Assembly: GCF_014076415.1 (NCBI RefSeq)
Contig: NZ_CP043568.1
Location: forward strand, 3,658,001 to 3,722,000
From: Comamonas testosteroni
GTDB lineage: Bacteria; Pseudomonadota; Gammaproteobacteria; Burkholderiales; Burkholderiaceae_C
DNA: 64,000 nucleotides
Direction of reading: 5' to 3'
Made by a program: the position numbers and the translations under genes. Position 1 is the first letter of the stretch, and every line of letters begins with the position of its first letter. This document shows, in pieces, positions 4,161 to 8,102 of the stretch. A model generated the notes under the pieces. That model worked only from the letters and a program-made list of their open reading frames with translations, was not told the origin of the DNA and searched no databases.

Positions 4161-4561
4161 CTAGTTCTGGGAAAAGCCAATGGGGCCTGTCGAATATGGA
4201 CAAGGGCAAAACAGCAAGGCTGGCAGGAATCACGGCAGCGCCCTCCGCCAAAGCACAAGACCAGCCGGTGGACCCGATCCAGGGTACTGCGATTGACACG
4301 ACTTGCATCAGGGCGGCAGAAACCGCAACCCTGAATGGGCCCGTAACCCACCGCATCCCGCTGCGTGTCCTGATGAATACTGTGAGGAATATCGAGAGTT
4401 CCGCCTCAAACGTAAACCAAATGCTACGTAATGGCCATGAACTCACAGAATTCAGCGTTGCGCCACCTTCTCCTACAGAAGGGTTTTCCATGACTCGGCG
4501 ACCATGCACCCACAGCAAGCCAACCCGGTTTGCTGGTCACCAACCTGAAGGAGTGAAGGAA

Positions 4562-4759
4562 ATGACGCAACAAGCGAACCAGCAGCACAGCCCCAGCCAG
4601 CAGGACAAGCAGCAACAGCAGCAGCAAAACCCCGGGCAACGCCAACCAGGCCAGAGCACCAGTCAGCCCGGCCAGCAGCAACAGCAAACCCCAGGACAGC
4701 AGAAGAACCCTGCTCAGCAACAGCAGCCAGGGCAGCAGCACAAAACTCCCCAGCAGTGA
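4562..4759 (+). CDS. Small Gln-rich low-complexity protein, 65 aa
   Basis: The start ATG 4562 (MTQQANQQHS) has an excellent ribosome-binding site, GAAGGAGTGAAGGAA, directly upstream, which argues that it is translated although the frame is open from 4196. About half of the residues are Gln, the rest mostly Pro, Gly, Ser, Asn and Lys, in QQQQQ and PGQQ-type runs; no hydrophobic core, so it is predicted to be disordered. It lies 68 bases before the PRC-barrel gene and may be expressed with it. Function unknown; hydrophilic Gln-rich proteins of this kind are sometimes stress-related, but nothing here proves that. Confidence 0.6.
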   Translation: MTQQANQQHSPSQQDKQQQQQQNPGQRQPGQSTSQPGQQQQQTPGQQKNPAQQQQPGQQHKTPQQ

Positions 4760-4827
4760 AAGGGAGCGCCTCAGCGCTGGCCCACCTAACCAGCGTTGTT
4801 ATGTACCACGCAAAGAAAGGAGCAGGA

Positions 4828-5175
4828 ATGCAATTAGCCTCACCTGTCATCTCATCCGATCGTGTCAACGGCACCAACGTCTACAACCCCAACGGCGACA
4901 AGCTGGGAGCTATCGACTCTCTGATGATCGACAAGCTCACCGGCAAGATTCGATATGCAGTGATGCAGTTTGGCGGTTTCCTGGGCATAGGCTCAGATCT
5001 CTACCCACTGCCGTGGGATAGCCTCAAATACGAACCCAGCCAAGGCGGGTACGTGGTCTCCGTTACCAAGGAGCGGCTTGAAGACGCCCCTCACTACAAG
5101 GGAGGCACATTGCCCGAATACACCGACGACTATGGCCGCCGTGTTTATGACCACTACGGTGTGCCCTTTGTCTAA
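4828..5175 (+). CDS. PRC-barrel domain protein, 115 aa
   Basis: The start ATG 4828 follows AAAGGAGCAGGA. Residues about 5-75 match the PRC-barrel pattern: RVNGTNVYNPNGDKLGAIDSL, KLTGKIRYAVMQFGGFLGIG, YPLPWDSLKYE. The tail (ERLEDAPHYKGGTLPEY...DHYGVPFV) is common in stand-alone PRC-barrel proteins of proteobacteria. These small proteins are thought to be adaptors that bind RNA or other proteins; several are induced by stress. It is preceded by the Gln-rich gene and shares its orientation. Confidence 0.85.
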   Translation: MQLASPVISSDRVNGTNVYNPNGDKLGAIDSLMIDKLTGKIRYAVMQFGGFLGIGSDLYPLPWDSLKYEPSQGGYVVSVTKERLEDAPHYKGGTLPEYTDDYGRRVYDHYGVPFV

Positions 5176-5576
5176 ACTCGGCACGCAGCCACACATGCGC
5201 TAGTGCCCATACTCAAGAAGAACCGCAGGCCGGTCAATGCCGGCCGCCAACCAGTCAAAGTTCAGCCCACCTCGCGGTCGGCTTTTTTTTCGCGGAGATT
5301 TTCAAATGTAGCCTCCTGGCCCCGCGGGCCTCAAGCGCGACCTCTCCCCGCAGGGTCAAGCGGGGCCATCCGGTGTGATTGTTCCTGGTACAAGGTATTG
5401 CCCAAAATCGAGGCTGGAAATACGCTTTGCCAATACCGTAGTGCACAAGCTGTGAGCTGCACTCTGAGCGGTCACACCAGATGGTGACGTTACCCATCGC
5501 TTTCTGCCGAGCCTGAGGTTCTCTATCCTCCCTCCGCTTCCCCAGGCACGCCGCAAGGCATCGGCCTTTACGCATA

Positions 5577-5607
5577 AGCCCACCCGCCAACGCCGGTGGG
5601 CTTTTTC
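5577..5607 (+). terminator. Strong orphan terminator
   Basis: AGCCCACC (5577-5584), loop of 10 bases, GGTGGGCT (5595-5602), then TTTT. There is no recognisable coding gene between 5176 and this point, so it may end an untranslated RNA or a long read-through from the PRC-barrel gene. A second T-run (5282-5288) after a GC-rich stretch is a weaker terminator candidate for the PRC gene. Confidence 0.75.
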
Positions 5608-5658
5608 TTTGCAGGCAGACACTCGGTGCGGCCACGCAACACATGGGGTCGACGTCTG

Positions 5659-5723
5659 TTGACGCGCTGTACAGGGCAAAATTAAACTACTGTACAAATG
5701 AACAGCACTGATGAAAATAACAG
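5659..5723 (+). promoter_or_regulatory. SOS promoter with two tandem LexA-type boxes
   Basis: A promoter-like TTGACG (5659-5664), 18-base spacer and TAAACT (5683-5688) is followed at once by CTGTACAAATGAACAG (5690-5705), an exact CTGT-N8-ACAG LexA box with the flanking TA of the E. coli consensus. A second site, CTGATGAAAATAACAG (5708-5723), matches with one change (CTGA for CTGT) and has flanking A and TA. Centres are 18 bases apart. The first box covers the expected transcription start, as in repressible SOS promoters. Consensus recalled from enterobacterial and betaproteobacterial LexA. Confidence 0.75.
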
Positions 5724-5871
5724 TAAAATTCAAAGCAACAGCTTGCTGCGCCAGAGCGCGAAGCGCATTCCCTCCATACCTTTGTTGATTTCGCCTGCTC
5801 TCAAGAGCGCTGGACTTTTTTATCCGCCCCCGCCCATCCAGCGGGCCTGCTTCTCGCCAAAAGGAGACTCC

Positions 5872-5946
5872 ATGCTGTACAGCACCGTTCCTCAACCCGT
5901 TGATGAAGACCTCGTGCAGCGCCTGCGCGAGAAGGGAGGCCTGTGA
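5872..5946 (+). CDS. Micro-ORF 1 of the SOS unit, 24 aa
   Basis: ATG 5872 (MLYSTVPQPVDEDLVQRLR) is placed 6 bases after AAAAGGAGAC, a strong ribosome-binding site. The peptide is short, soluble and charged at its C-terminus (VQRLREKGGL). The frame is open back to 5698, but that upstream ATG lies inside the LexA box and could not have a leader. It is the first translated unit after the LexA-type boxes; its 3' end carries the ribosome-binding site of the next frame (GGGAGG), suggesting translational coupling. It could be a leader peptide. Family unknown. Confidence 0.5.
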   Translation: MLYSTVPQPVDEDLVQRLREKGGL

Positions 5947-6032
5947 AATGGCCACACATCCCCACCGCCCTGCTCGCGCTGCTCCTGACAGTCCTGCTTT
6001 TGATCGCCCCGGCCTTGGAGCAAAGCTACTGA
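5943..6032 (+). CDS. Alternative overlapping hydrophobic peptide, 29 aa
   Basis: GTG 5943 overlaps the TGA of micro-ORF 1 (GTGA). The frame reads VKWPHIPTALL... with about 18 consecutive hydrophobic residues and ends LEQSY, the layout of a membrane-inserting peptide. The GGGAGG site is only 3 bases upstream, closer than ideal, which favours the overlapping ATG 5948 frame. Listed because two frames with membrane character in the same 90 bases are unusual. Confidence 0.25.
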   Translation: MKWPHIPTALLALLLTVLLLIAPALEQSY

Positions 6033-6127
6033 CCGCCGCGCAATGGGGCCTCGGCCTTCTGGGGATCATTGGCCTCATCGGCGTGGCCGTCGTCATTGCC
6101 ACCACCCCGGAAGCCTGGCCGCTGTGA
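5948..6127 (+). CDS. Small single-span membrane protein of the SOS unit, 59 aa
   Basis: ATG 5948 lies one base after the stop of micro-ORF 1, with GGGAGG 8 bases upstream (good spacing). The N-terminal 24 residues are basic and Pro/Ala-rich (MATHPHRPARAAPD), followed by a hydrophobic helix (about residues 33-51, GLGLLGIIGLIGVAVVIAT) and a short tail TPEAWPL. Predicted inner-membrane peptide. A second frame over the same bases (5943-6032, start GTG overlapping the previous stop) also encodes a strongly hydrophobic peptide, so the exact product is uncertain. Position behind a LexA-type promoter recalls SOS-induced membrane peptides such as TisB, without visible homology. Confidence 0.5.
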   Translation: MATHPHRPARAAPDSPAFDRPGLGAKLLTAAQWGLGLLGIIGLIGVAVVIATTPEAWPL

Positions 6128-6195
6128 ACGGTCAACCTCATCGATTTTGATAGCCACAGGCGTTTTCCTGACAAGCGCCAGACCGGAGAAATATC

Positions 6196-6390
6196 ATGGA
6201 AAAGATCATCGAATCCCTGATCCTCGTCGCCGCCATCTTCATGGGCGTACTGTGGCTTGCCACCCCCAACGCCCAGGCTGACGAACCCACCACTCTCACC
6301 AAATCCGTGCGCGACGAGTTCGCTTGCCCGGGTATGCATGCCGAATGGCTGGACGCCCACACCGTCCAGTGCCTGCGTGAAAAGCCCTGA
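6196..6390 (+). CDS. Small secreted or membrane-anchored protein, 64 aa
   Basis: ATG 6196 follows CGGAGAA with a 5-base gap. Residues 1-29 form a signal peptide or signal anchor (MEKIIESLILVAAIFMGVL...) ending in NAQA, a good signal peptidase I site. The mature part would be about 35 aa, hydrophilic, with two Cys (FACPGMHAEW, HTVQCLREKP) that could form a disulfide in the periplasm. Unknown family. It is the last supported gene downstream of the LexA-type promoter and lies before the terminator at 6617-6655, in the same orientation as the micro-ORFs. Confidence 0.55.
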   Translation: MEKIIESLILVAAIFMGVLWLATPNAQADEPTTLTKSVRDEFACPGMHAEWLDAHTVQCLREKP

Positions 6391-6616
6391 TCGACTGCCC
6401 CGCTGCCCCCGCGAACAGCCCGTGCCCCATCGACACCGTACGGCAACAGCTACAGCACCGCGACAGCCAACACGGGCGACTGCTGCCTGCTATGGAAAGC
6501 AAAGCTGCTAGTTCAATCCAGACAATGCCATCAGTAGCAGCACACTTTCAAATGCAGATAGGGCAAGCGCAACGCGATCACCAATTCAGAAGTTCGGAAG
6601 CGCCCGCCAAGCAGAC

Positions 6617-6655
6617 AAAAGCCCGCAAGGCTCAAGACCTAGCAGGCTTTTTGCC
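6617..6655 (+). terminator. Probable terminator of the SOS micro-operon
   Basis: AAAAGCCCGC pairs imperfectly with GCAGGCTTTTT across a loop of about 15 bases. It is the first terminator-like hairpin after the gene at 6196-6390; the 226 bases between hold no convincing gene. Confidence 0.5.
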
Positions 6656-6721
6656 AAGTGGTTGGCATGTACTACCGCTACCTCAATCTGCTATGGCAGG
6701 CCGCAAGCACTTGAGCGAGCC

Positions 6722-7082
6722 TTACTCGGAAGGTTTTGCGTAGACCTCTGCACTCAGCACCTCAAGGCCGACAAAGGGTTCTGTCCCTTCGACCCAGGCA
6801 TCGTGACCGGGTGGGATGGCGTAGGACTTCCCTGCGCTGAGCATTTTCTGAGAGCCGTCCTGCATTTGAACAGTGAGCTTTCCCGAGACGACGGGCCCCA
6901 CATGCGAGAGTTGCCAGTATTCGGTCTTCACCACGGGCTTGATGCATTCGGACCAGCGCCATCCGGGCTCAAAGTTGAAGCGTCCAATCGTGTAGACTTG
7001 GAGCTTTGCTAGGTGTGCGAAGTTCATCGGGCTCGCTGTGTGACCTGACTTCTAGCTTCTCAACGCTGACTGGAGTGGCCAT
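6722..7082 (-). pseudogene. Cupin-domain protein gene with a frameshift
   Basis: The C-terminal frame (stop at 6722) encodes a typical small cupin: TIGRFNFEPGWRWSECIKPV, GPVVSGKLTVQM, SYAIPPGHDAWVEG. The expected N-terminus (MATPVSVEKLEVRS...DELRTPSK) is in a different frame starting at ATG 7082, which has a strong site AAGGAGAAGGTC. The frames meet around 7003-7010 (AAAGC); removing one A would join DELRTPS to KLQVYTIGRF, as family members read. So either a one-base insertion has broken the gene, or the assembly has an error, or an internal ATG (7027) yields a short cupin. Cupins bind metals in a beta-barrel; substrate unknown. Region 7083-7535 shows no supported gene. Confidence 0.65.
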
Positions 7083-7535
7083 GACCTTCTCCTTCATAAG
7101 AGCTGCACCTTGAGCCCCCAAGGAATTCTTCAGGTATAGCTGGTGAGCCGAAGGACAGGTGAAAAAATTCATCACTACGTCATTCGCATGGCATTGCCAG
7201 AAGTACTTATCAGTTACCAATTGCTGCATGCGGCACGGCACTGCCCGCGCCGCCCAATCCACGGCTGGCAGCAAAAAGCATGCTTTGACATACAGGGGGC
7301 CTACGCGGCCCATCTAAAGCGCTACAAGTTCGCACAAGTTTCAACGCCCTACCCATTGCTAAAGCTGGCTGAACTGTCCAGACCCCGCCCACCCAGCCTG
7401 CGCCATATGGGCTTTTTTGTTTGCTGTTCGCGGAGGCACGATGGGACGCACCGACCCCTTGGCCTCAGCGAGGCACATGCCCGAGTCATCCGCCGCGCAC
7501 CAAGAGCCTACTAGCACTTGAGCCCGCCGGCTCGG

Positions 7536-7781
7536 CTACTGTGCAGGGTGGTCGCGGCGGAACAGCTCCCACTCGTCGATTTCCGTGCCGTTGGGCAGCA
7601 CGCAGATGCCGCGCTCTCCGGCAGCGGTCTTCTCGATGCGGGACTTGCCGTCCAGCTTGGCGCAGTACACCGATGCGGAGTTGGCCATGCCGATCACAGG
7701 CGCAGCGGACTGAGGCTGGGCGCAACCGCTGATGGCAAGTGCAGAAAGTACTGCGCTGGTGGTTCCAAGTGCTTTTTTCAT
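7536..7781 (-). CDS. DUF333 lipoprotein (putative hemolysin-type)
   Basis: ATG 7781 gives MKKALGTTSAVLSALAISGC with a lipobox (LAISGC) and so an outer- or inner-membrane lipoprotein of about 61 mature residues. The mature part matches the DUF333 pattern: SASVYCAKLDGK, GERGICVLPNGTEIDEWELFRRDH. The open frame extends 11 codons further upstream (MKKGGICYIES), but the shorter start gives a normal signal peptide. Family members are short, periplasmic and of unknown function; the hemolysin label in databases is not experimentally grounded. Isolated gene. Confidence 0.8.
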   Translation of the reverse strand: MKKALGTTSAVLSALAISGCAQPQSAAPVIGMANSASVYCAKLDGKSRIEKTAAGERGICVLPNGTEIDEWELFRRDHPAQ

Positions 7782-8102
7782 GGACTCAATGTAGCAAATG
7801 CCGCCTTTTTTCATTGAGCTGCAAGAAATCCTGACTCACATCAATCCCTCGTTTCCTTCATACATATGGGCTAAGGGTTGGCACCGACGATGCTGGCGGC
7901 ACTCTGTCAGCAAATGTCACTTTTAGTTATTTCACCTCCAAAAGAGGAAAAGTGAACTGTCGGAAATCGCAGGAAGTTGTTAATTTCTAATCCGGAAGAT
8001 GAGCGGCTGACACATTACAGGCCGCCTTGGCATTTAGATTTGACTAGAGATATGGCCAGTCTGGCCTGTCTGTTGGTGATCACTAGCAGAAGGGCTGTGT
8101 GT

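What the first reader, a model, noticed from the sequence alone, without database searches (positions are those of the whole stretch)
5659..6390. Tandem LexA-type boxes driving a micro-operon of tiny membrane or secreted peptides
An exact CTGT-N8-ACAG box at 5690-5705 sits just after a promoter-like TTGACG-N18-TAAACT, and a second near-match (CTGA-N8-ACAG) follows at 5708-5723. Downstream are only very small frames: a 24-aa peptide, a 59-aa single-span protein, and a 64-aa protein with signal peptide and two cysteines, each with its own ribosome-binding site. SOS-induced small membrane peptides (TisB type) and SOS-linked bacteriocin or phage lysis genes are the known analogues, but none is visibly homologous. 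It could be a new SOS-controlled toxin, dormancy or cell-division-blocking unit, or a prophage remnant.
Basis: partly seen in the sequence, partly recalled or inferred. Interest (0 to 1): 0.72.

Follow-up and report, generated by a model that had tools for sequence, protein, structure and literature searches.

The report
SOS-controlled prophage-derived micro-protein operon
A tiny set of overlapping genes for membrane and secreted mini-proteins, probably inherited from a bacterial virus, sits behind the same kind of DNA-damage switch that the bacterium uses for its own recA gene, so it is probably turned on when DNA is damaged; what the mini-proteins do is still unknown.

Summary
Tandem LexA boxes (5690-5705, 5708-5723) follow TTGACG-N18-TAAACT in a Comamonas chromosome. 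The layout matches this genome's own recA promoter; lexA also uses a CTGA-type box. The unit recurs in 15 of 53 Comamonas genomes. Box arms are nearly invariant while cores and flanks drift. Of 31 exact tandem sites in those genomes, 26 lie at recA or at this unit.

The frames behave as genes: p24, an overlooked 29-aa frame (p29, 5943-6032), p59, and a secreted-type two-cysteine p64 (pN/pS 0.20). Selection sits on p29 in the p29/p59 overlap and on p59 after it. No significant match in the family libraries searched.

The cassette belongs to Comamonas prophages: of 30 viral-collection loci, 25 have rdgC downstream and 19 a CI-type repressor upstream. Most prophage copies lack the adjacent boxes, but seven have a LexA box at an upstream gene, and one integrase-bearing prophage carries the boxed unit. 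The window copy is best read as a retained, LexA-controlled piece of a prophage left arm. An envelope-acting SOS effector (division block, dormancy, exclusion) is plausible but untested.

The parts
5583..5600 (+). terminator-like hairpin plus T run just upstream of the LexA promoter
   Evidence: scan (2 found against 1.5 +/- 1.3 in shuffles, so weak alone); by eye, similar hairpins precede the p59 gene in prophage copies L067 and L032
5659..5688 (+). sigma-70-like promoter TTGACG-N18-TAAACT
   Evidence: 9 of 12 matches; mean pairwise identity over 14 genomes 0.88 (-35) and 0.91 (-10) against 0.68 in the spacer
5690..5705 (+). LexA box 1, CTGTACAAATGAACAG
   Evidence: arms 1.00 and 0.96 identical, core 0.72; one mismatch from the box CTGTACATATGAACAG at a UmuD-like gene of the same genome
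5708..5723 (+). LexA box 2, CTGATGAAAATAACAG
   Evidence: arms 1.00 and 0.96 identical, core 0.87; same CTGA-N8-ACAG form as in this genome's lexA (CTGATTAAAAATACAG) and recA (CTGAATGCAAAAACAG) promoters
5706..5871 (+). untranslated leader after box 1, 144-325 nt in the 14 genomes measured, no convincing shared fold
   Evidence: the competing 82-aa ORF from 5698 is intact in 4 of 15 and its part upstream of p24 has pN/pS 0.69
5872..5946 (+). p24, MLYSTVPQPVDEDLVQRLREKGGL; its last codons also hold the GGGAGG before p29/p59
   Evidence: open in 15 of 15; pN/pS 0.29-0.30
5943..6032 (+). p29, 29-aa hydrophobic peptide; GTG start overlaps the p24 stop
   Evidence: intact in 14 of 15 (broken by a deletion in G034); over the overlap pN/pS 0.41 in its frame, 1.47 in the p59 frame, 0.79 in the third
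5948..6127 (+). p59, one hydrophobic span; only the part after the overlap is conserved (..TPEAWPL)
   Evidence: pN/pS 0.37 for 6035-6124, other frames 1.29 and 1.29; broken in G034 and G011; relatives in 29 of 30 viral-collection loci
6196..6390 (+). p64, signal-peptide-like N-terminus with AQA|DE cleavage-like site (by eye), then about 36 residues with two invariant Cys
   Evidence: pN/pS 0.20, 0.12 among the seven genomes grouped as chromosomal-site; invariant columns in A2; no Pfam hit
4828..5175 (+). PRC-barrel protein gene next to the boxed unit in 11 of 15 genomes
   Evidence: PF05239; synteny
7536..7814 (-). DUF333 protein gene, also present beside the integrase of the G048 prophage
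   Evidence: PF03891; 77% identical in L192
7977..9320 (+). GGDEF protein gene; 49-51% identical GGDEF genes follow the cassette in 4 of 30 viral-collection loci
   Evidence: PF00990

Best explanation
The locus is a LexA-repressed, DNA-damage-inducible micro-operon that descends from the left arm of Comamonas temperate phages. LexA dimers on two boxes cover the promoter start region. When RecA triggers LexA cleavage, one transcript would be made. On it, p24 is translated, and ribosomes ending at its TGA can restart at the overlapping GTG (p29) or at the ATG just after it (p59); p64 follows with its own RBS. The products are two single-span membrane micro-proteins and a secreted two-cysteine peptide. 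They most likely act together on the cell envelope during SOS, as a host-takeover, division-block or exclusion function inherited from the phage. Shown by computation: the boxes, their conservation, coding selection, prophage relatives. Inferred: LexA binding, induction, translational coupling, membrane and periplasmic location. The envelope function is a guess (about 0.3).
For: Boxes and promoter. Same tandem layout as own recA, and a CTGA-type box in lexA. Three UmuD-like genes and a gene I recognise as an integron integrase (name recalled) carry single boxes of this type. Genus-wide tandem pattern: 34 rows = 31 distinct sites in 30 of 53 genomes, control 0; 12 sites are this unit, 14 recA, 4 neither, 1 not examined. 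Footprint. Exact box within 800 bp in 14 of the 15 unit copies and in 0 of the 30 other p64-like matches read in the same script. Selection. Prophage homologues: rdgC downstream in 25 of 30 and CI-type repressor upstream in 19 of 30 viral-collection loci. All 7 loci found with the 185-aa gene (of 48 searched) have an exact LexA box before it, upstream of the cassette on the same strand. The G048 prophage has portal, tape measure, CI, Ant and integrase around the boxed unit.
Against: No expression or binding data. The family is nearly confined to one genus (1 of 141 genera; 2 of 158), and 33 of 53 Comamonas genomes have no p64 match, so it is dispensable. p59 is broken in 2 of 15 unit copies and p29 in 1. 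The first box of G020 has TCAG for ACAG, and the second box of G048 has CCAG. Among the chromosomal-site genomes p24 and p29 have higher pN/pS (0.40, 0.51) than in the four genomes grouped as prophage-site (0.00, 0.34), which may mean relaxed constraint on them; p64 goes the other way (0.12 against 0.32). Several CI-type hits counted are only 23-27% identical. Some neighbours of the window copy (cupin, universal stress protein) are not phage genes, so the extent of phage DNA is unclear. The p64 tree does not firmly separate boxed from unboxed copies (support 47/93): the G022 p64 falls among prophage copies and two long-branched unboxed copies fall with the boxed ones.
Confidence: 0.75

Rival explanations
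1. It is a decaying prophage relic. The LexA promoter is left over and the peptides no longer matter to the host.
For: Prophage homologues; frame breaks in G034 and G011; truncated integrase about 1 kb downstream of the unit in G034; p24 and p29 pN/pS 0.40 and 0.51 in the chromosomal-site group.
Against: p64 pN/pS 0.12 among the seven genomes grouped as chromosomal-site; box arms 0.96-1.00 identical while cores and flanks drift.
Confidence: 0.2
2. It is an SOS-induced type I toxin or dormancy unit like TisB or DinQ, with p29 as the toxin.
For: LexA-type control, 29-residue single-span peptide.
Against: No Rfam hit in 4500-8000 and no minus-strand promoter-like site in 5400-6700, though one minus-strand terminator-like site (5749-5735) was listed. 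p24 was found in 10 of 30 viral-collection loci, and L067 keeps p59-p64 without p29, so the toxin would be the optional part. Two further conserved proteins are unexplained.
Confidence: 0.15
3. It is an SOS cell-division inhibitor that acts on septal wall enzymes, as SidA does, or a Kil-like phage takeover function.
For: LexA-type control; a 29-aa membrane peptide, the size of Caulobacter SidA (PMC4211646, passages); position upstream of a recombination gene in the phage left arm.
Against: No family match in the searches run; direct comparison with SidA or Kil was not made; other division inhibitors of this genome were not looked for.
Confidence: 0.25
4. The LexA unit controls prophage induction itself (p24 or a partner as a small antirepressor), as in Gifsy phages where LexA directly controls small antirepressor genes.
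For: Gifsy precedent, including terminator-like palindromes before the LexA box (PMC3121763, passages); an Ant-like gene lies downstream of the unit in the G048 prophage; LexA boxes recur in prophage left arms.
Against: Ant is more than 3 kb away and separated by other genes; selection and co-occurrence centre on membrane/secreted proteins, not on a cytoplasmic binder.
Confidence: 0.1
5. The tandem boxes are chance or belong to another regulator.
For: Single exact boxes are common (58 against 32 control).
Against: Tandem pattern specificity, recA-like layout and arm conservation.
Confidence: 0.03

Closest known systems
SOS-regulated small membrane peptides of E. coli (TisB, DinQ)
   Same: LexA-type promoter, single-span peptide of about the same size (search listing)
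   Different: no family match, no known antisense RNA seen, four-gene overlapping operon with a secreted-type partner, prophage relatives
SidA of Caulobacter (29-aa SOS division inhibitor)
   Same: SOS-type control and a 29-aa membrane peptide (PMC4211646, passages)
   Different: extra genes; division effect untested; no direct sequence comparison made
lambda left arm small genes (Kil) upstream of recombination genes
   Same: small genes between repressor and recombination gene of a temperate phage (lambda gene order recalled; Kil paper passages)
   Different: recombination gene is RdgC-type, LexA-type control, membrane/secreted products
Gifsy prophage LexA-controlled antirepressor units
   Same: prophage transcription unit placed directly under LexA behind a terminator-like hairpin (PMC3121763, passages)
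   Different: products are membrane/secreted micro-proteins; no antirepressor similarity found

Membership tests
LexA (SOS) regulon of this host | host has LexA, and boxes of the form CTGN-N8-NCAG at SOS genes | tested here: met
   lexA (TIGR00498, 219.6 bits); boxes at recA, lexA and three UmuD-like genes
LexA (SOS) regulon of this host | box overlaps the promoter and is conserved in relatives | tested here: met
LexA (SOS) regulon of this host | LexA binding and damage induction | not testable with these tools
   needs experiments
Comamonas prophage left-arm cassette | homologous p59-p64 genes next to phage repressor and rdgC | tested here: met
   met for the relatives in prophages; the window copy itself has no repressor or rdgC recognised beside it
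type I toxin-antitoxin (TisB/IstR type) | antisense RNA antitoxin | tested here: inconclusive
   no Rfam match, no minus-strand promoter-like site; an unknown RNA is not excluded
type I toxin-antitoxin (TisB/IstR type) | toxic membrane peptide | not testable with these tools
   hydrophobic 29-aa frame under selection but toxicity unknown
SOS division inhibitors (SidA, YneA, SosA) | blocks division at the septal wall machinery | not testable with these tools
   no family match
phage antirepressor | similarity to known antirepressor families | tested here: not met
   PHROGs: no match for p29, p59 or the 82-aa ORF that contains p24 in frame; p64 only weak hits, E 0.017 and above (the direct p24 reference in that call was out of frame)

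The most novel reading that the evidence does not exclude
A new class of SOS effector: a prophage-born, LexA-wired micro-operon in which one 24-aa gene feeds ribosomes at its stop codon into two out-of-frame overlapping membrane micro-proteins, which work with a secreted disulfide peptide to reshape the envelope during DNA damage. Comamonas phages use it at induction, and C. testosteroni has kept it as its own damage-response gene.
Probability: 0.25. Interest if true: 0.75.

Novelty: new variant of a known kind. Interest (0 to 1): 0.52.

Why it matters
SOS-induced membrane micro-proteins are known from E. coli, Caulobacter, Bacillus subtilis and Staphylococcus aureus (search listings). This would be a separate, phage-derived set in Comamonas with a recA-like control region. 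It offers a ready test of how prophage early genes are wired to, or kept on, the host damage switch. The p24/p29/p59 overlap is also a compact case for stop-codon re-initiation in two frames.

Tried and rejected
Looked for a SOS-induced small RNA in the leader: single-sequence folds of the last 135 nt of 15 leaders show no shared structure by eye and Rfam gives nothing; rejected. Considered the 82-aa ORF from 5698 (start inside box 1) as the real gene: pN/pS 0.69 upstream of p24 and intact in only 4 of 15; rejected in favour of p24. The promoter scan also listed CTGACA-N18-TATCAT at 6168-6197 (10 of 12); its second hexamer overlaps the p64 ATG, so I do not count it as the p64 promoter. DNA search of phage and plasmid collections with the locus and tblastn with p64 gave no match. 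A profile search of the PDB gave only two hits, E 0.5 and 0.89, matching profile positions 9-50. The AlphaFold2 model of p64 is poor (mean pLDDT 68, pTM 0.29; helix 2-22, a short helix and two short strands), so no fold search was run. NCBIfam gave p64 only DsbE at 13.9 bits against a cut-off of 359.

Flaws in my own calls: in the p64 tree my box label failed (a wrong pattern; no row was labelled), so the grouping of boxed copies was read by eye. The first alignment mixed orientations for four minus-strand hits; searches replaced it. In one search the p24 reference was out of frame (p24 was covered there only through the 82-aa ORF; Pfam had the right frame). In one search the GGDEF query was out of frame, so its GGDEF rows show DNA similarity only; the GGDEF percentages in this report are.

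Papers: the searches 'Comamonas testosteroni'+'LexA', 'Comamonas'+'prophage'+'SOS' (12 of 17 listed) and 'LexA box'+'prophage'+'betaproteobacteria' (none) showed no title or abstract start that describes this unit; only listings were read for these.

Full report
What is there. The window lies at C1:3658001-3722000 of a 5.95-Mb genome. The 12 loci from named records that hold a relative of the 64-aa protein are all Comamonas, mostly C. testosteroni. At 5659-5688 there is TTGACG-N18-TAAACT, then CTGTACAAATGAACAG (5690-5705) and CTGATGAAAATAACAG (5708-5723). Four frames follow: p24 (5872-5946), p29 (GTG, 5943-6032), p59 (5948-6127) and p64 (6196-6390).

More than chance. One exact CTGT-N8-ACAG is not much: 4 in the window against 0.81 expected, 58 in the genome against 32 for the reversed pattern. 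The pair is another matter. The pattern CTGT-N8-ACAG-N(1-3)-CTG-N9-ACAG, searched in 53 Comamonas genomes, gave 34 rows in 30 genomes, and the control pattern gave none. Three sites are palindromic and listed twice, so there are 31 distinct sites. Protein comparison around 30 of them assigns 12 to this unit and 14 to recA. Four matched none of the four query proteins (three of these precede related unnamed ORFs), and one site had no locus and was not examined. This genome has one site, the window's; its own recA is not matched because its first box ends in CCAG.

Same switch as recA and lexA. The genome has a clear lexA (219.6 bits) and recA. Its recA promoter reads TAAACTACTGTTCAAGCATCCAGCCTGAATGCAAAAACAG, and lexA is preceded by CTGATTAAAAATACAG and CTGGATGAACACACAG. 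The window reads TAAACTACTGTACAAATGAACAGCACTGATGAAAATAACAG. The 'near-match' CTGA-N8-ACAG is therefore a form used at the host's own recA and lexA. Three UmuD-like genes carry the same type of single box, as does a gene that I recognise as an integron integrase (name recalled).

Conservation of the boxes. Fifteen of 53 genomes hold the unit. Over the 14 aligned at the promoter, mean pairwise identity is 1.00/0.96 for the arms of box 1 and 0.72 for its core, 1.00/0.96 and 0.87 for box 2, 0.88 and 0.91 for the -35 and -10, and 0.66 for the flanks. In the fifteenth, G011, the two boxes are present in swapped order. Exceptions: the right arm of box 1 is TCAG in G020 and that of box 2 is CCAG in G048. 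Among 45 distinct p64-like matches that could be read in the loci given to the script (44 with 800 bp upstream), an exact box lies within 800 bp in 14, all of them unit copies; the other unit copy (G020) and the 30 non-unit matches have none. Matches listed for which no locus was held were not examined.

The frames are genes. Pairwise pN/pS over 13 genomes (G011 and G034 dropped): p64 0.20 (shifted frames 1.66 and 1.88), p24 0.29 (0.66, 1.83), p59 after the overlap 0.37 (1.29, 1.29). Within the p29/p59 overlap the p29 frame has 0.41, the p59 frame 1.47 and the third frame 0.79. So selection acts on p29 first and on p59 only after p29 ends. p24 is intact in 15 of 15, p29 in 14, p59 in 13, p64 in 15. 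I grouped seven genomes as chromosomal-site (shared neighbours; G049 placed by PRC synteny) and four as prophage-site (G022, G037, G042, G048; only G048 was examined as a prophage). In the first group p64 has 0.12, p59 after the overlap 0.38, p24 0.40 and p29 0.51; in the second 0.32, 0.29, 0.00 and 0.34. Strong constraint on p64 argues against simple decay; the higher p24 and p29 values allow some relaxation. The GGGAGG at 5934-5939, inside the p24 gene, is 8 nt from the p59 ATG and 3 nt from the p29 GTG, which overlaps the p24 stop; re-initiation at the p24 stop is my inference.

The proteins. p29 is a 29-residue hydrophobic peptide. p59 has one hydrophobic span and ends TPEAWPL. p64 has a hydrophobic N-terminus, an AQA|DE site of the signal-peptidase type and two invariant cysteines. 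Span and cleavage readings are by eye, not by a predictor. Pfam gave nothing for the four. PHROGs gave only weak hits to p64, E 0.017 and above; NCBIfam and PADLOC gave nothing significant for p29, p59 and p64. A PDB profile search and an AlphaFold2 model gave no lead.

Where it comes from. p64 relatives are abundant in a viral collection: 21 loci with the protein, 30 with the profile. In these 30 loci, rdgC follows on the same strand within 3.5 kb in 25, a CI-type repressor lies upstream on the same strand in 19 (several at only 23-27% identity), p24 is present in 10, and a GGDEF gene follows in 4; some of these loci are near-duplicates. Two rdgC copies match a PHROGs 'exonuclease recombination-associated' family. 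The window genome holds further, partly degenerate, copies, three of four examined having rdgC or GGDEF neighbours. The unit with LexA boxes also lies inside an integrase-bearing prophage of C. testosteroni NFYY023 (G048, identified through the record of the same length): portal, tape measure and CI on one side, Ant and integrase on the other; its ends were not mapped. In viral contig L107 the aligned unit lies about 5 kb from a gene that resembles the G048 portal by eye. In the window the flanking PRC-barrel, DUF333 and GGDEF genes have counterparts in such prophages, but no repressor, rdgC or integrase was recognised near it in the ORF lists that I read; no dedicated search for remnants was run. 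The boxed unit is next to the PRC gene in 11 of 15 genomes and elsewhere in G011, G020, G037 and G047.

LexA in the prophages. In the first 21 viral loci no exact box ends upstream of the p64 match within 900 bp; one, with a G+C-rich core, straddles the start of the truncated match in L086. Over 29 whole loci (L107 left out) there are 17 exact boxes in 14 loci. The 185-aa gene was found in 7 of 48 loci searched, always on the same strand and 1.4-4.5 kb upstream of p64, and all 7 have an exact LexA box in its promoter, as TTGACC-N17/18-hexamer-ACTGT-N8-ACAG; the seven fall into a few near-identical sequence types. Direct LexA control of this arm thus seems to occur in at least two forms. Whether the window form is a rewiring or the older state is open: the p64 tree is too weak.

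Range. Close p64 relatives are nearly limited to Comamonas: 3 of 299 genomes of the family, 1 of 141 genera; with the profile 4 of 399 genomes of the order, 2 of 158 genera; within the genus 20 of 53.

How it most likely works. Undamaged cells: LexA on both boxes shuts the promoter. Damage: LexA is cleaved, the operon is expressed together with recA, and membrane and periplasmic micro-proteins appear. Their target is unknown. The phage position (between repressor and recombination gene) and the membrane/secreted character favour an envelope-directed takeover or protection function; SidA (29-aa SOS division inhibitor, PMC4211646, passages) and the lambda Kil peptide (PMC3961180, passages) are functional precedents, not shown relatives. 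Gifsy phages are a precedent for prophage units put directly under LexA (PMC3121763, passages).

Verdict. Observation confirmed, SOS control well supported by sequence, prophage origin well supported, function open. A new family of micro-proteins in a known kind of circuit.

Noticed in passing
L075, L076, L085, L109, L110, L113, L115 (185-aa gene MNCRLGDLAIVVND...): An uncharacterised prophage gene upstream of the small-peptide cassette has an exact LexA box in its promoter in 7 of the 7 loci where it was found (of 48 searched); no PHROGs, NCBIfam or PADLOC match. Candidate LexA-controlled antirepressor or takeover gene.
   Followed up: partly
L215, L225, L228 (G016, G031, G038): Tandem LexA-type boxes precede related unnamed ORFs (MTDTLPARTFRIELCDTPELTDALRERAEARYARVLERQLG... 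and similar) starting 7 nt after the boxes in three Comamonas genomes of 2.3-3.2 Mb.
   Followed up: no
G000:C1:3651950-3652594: lexA lies only about 11 kb left of the unit in the window genome. Probably coincidence: in G048 the unit sits inside a prophage.
   Followed up: no
G022 (L135): The p64 gene behind the LexA boxes of G022 falls among prophage-type p64 copies, suggesting gene conversion between the unit and prophage cassettes.
   Followed up: no
G042, G048, G034, G037, G022 leaders (A1 columns 301-440): Extra 100-150 bp with inverted ends (CATCAAGAAAGAGTGC... / ...GCACTCTTCCTTGATGG) sits between boxes and p24. Looks like a small interspersed repeat.
   Followed up: no
L103 (G000:C1:3840700-3842200): An integron-integrase-like gene with a LexA box and a dihydrofolate-reductase-like ORF on the other side (names recalled from the sequence, not from a family search).
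   Followed up: no
window 10501, 11053, 60939: Three other exact CTGT-N8-ACAG sites with G+C-richer cores, all overlapping long ORFs; likely chance.
   Followed up: no
L033:5431-5700: A lipoprotein-like variant (..LMGGCKSESG..CPGMTAIWVSENIVKCVREEH) shares the two-cysteine motif of p64, next to a normal p64 copy.
   Followed up: no
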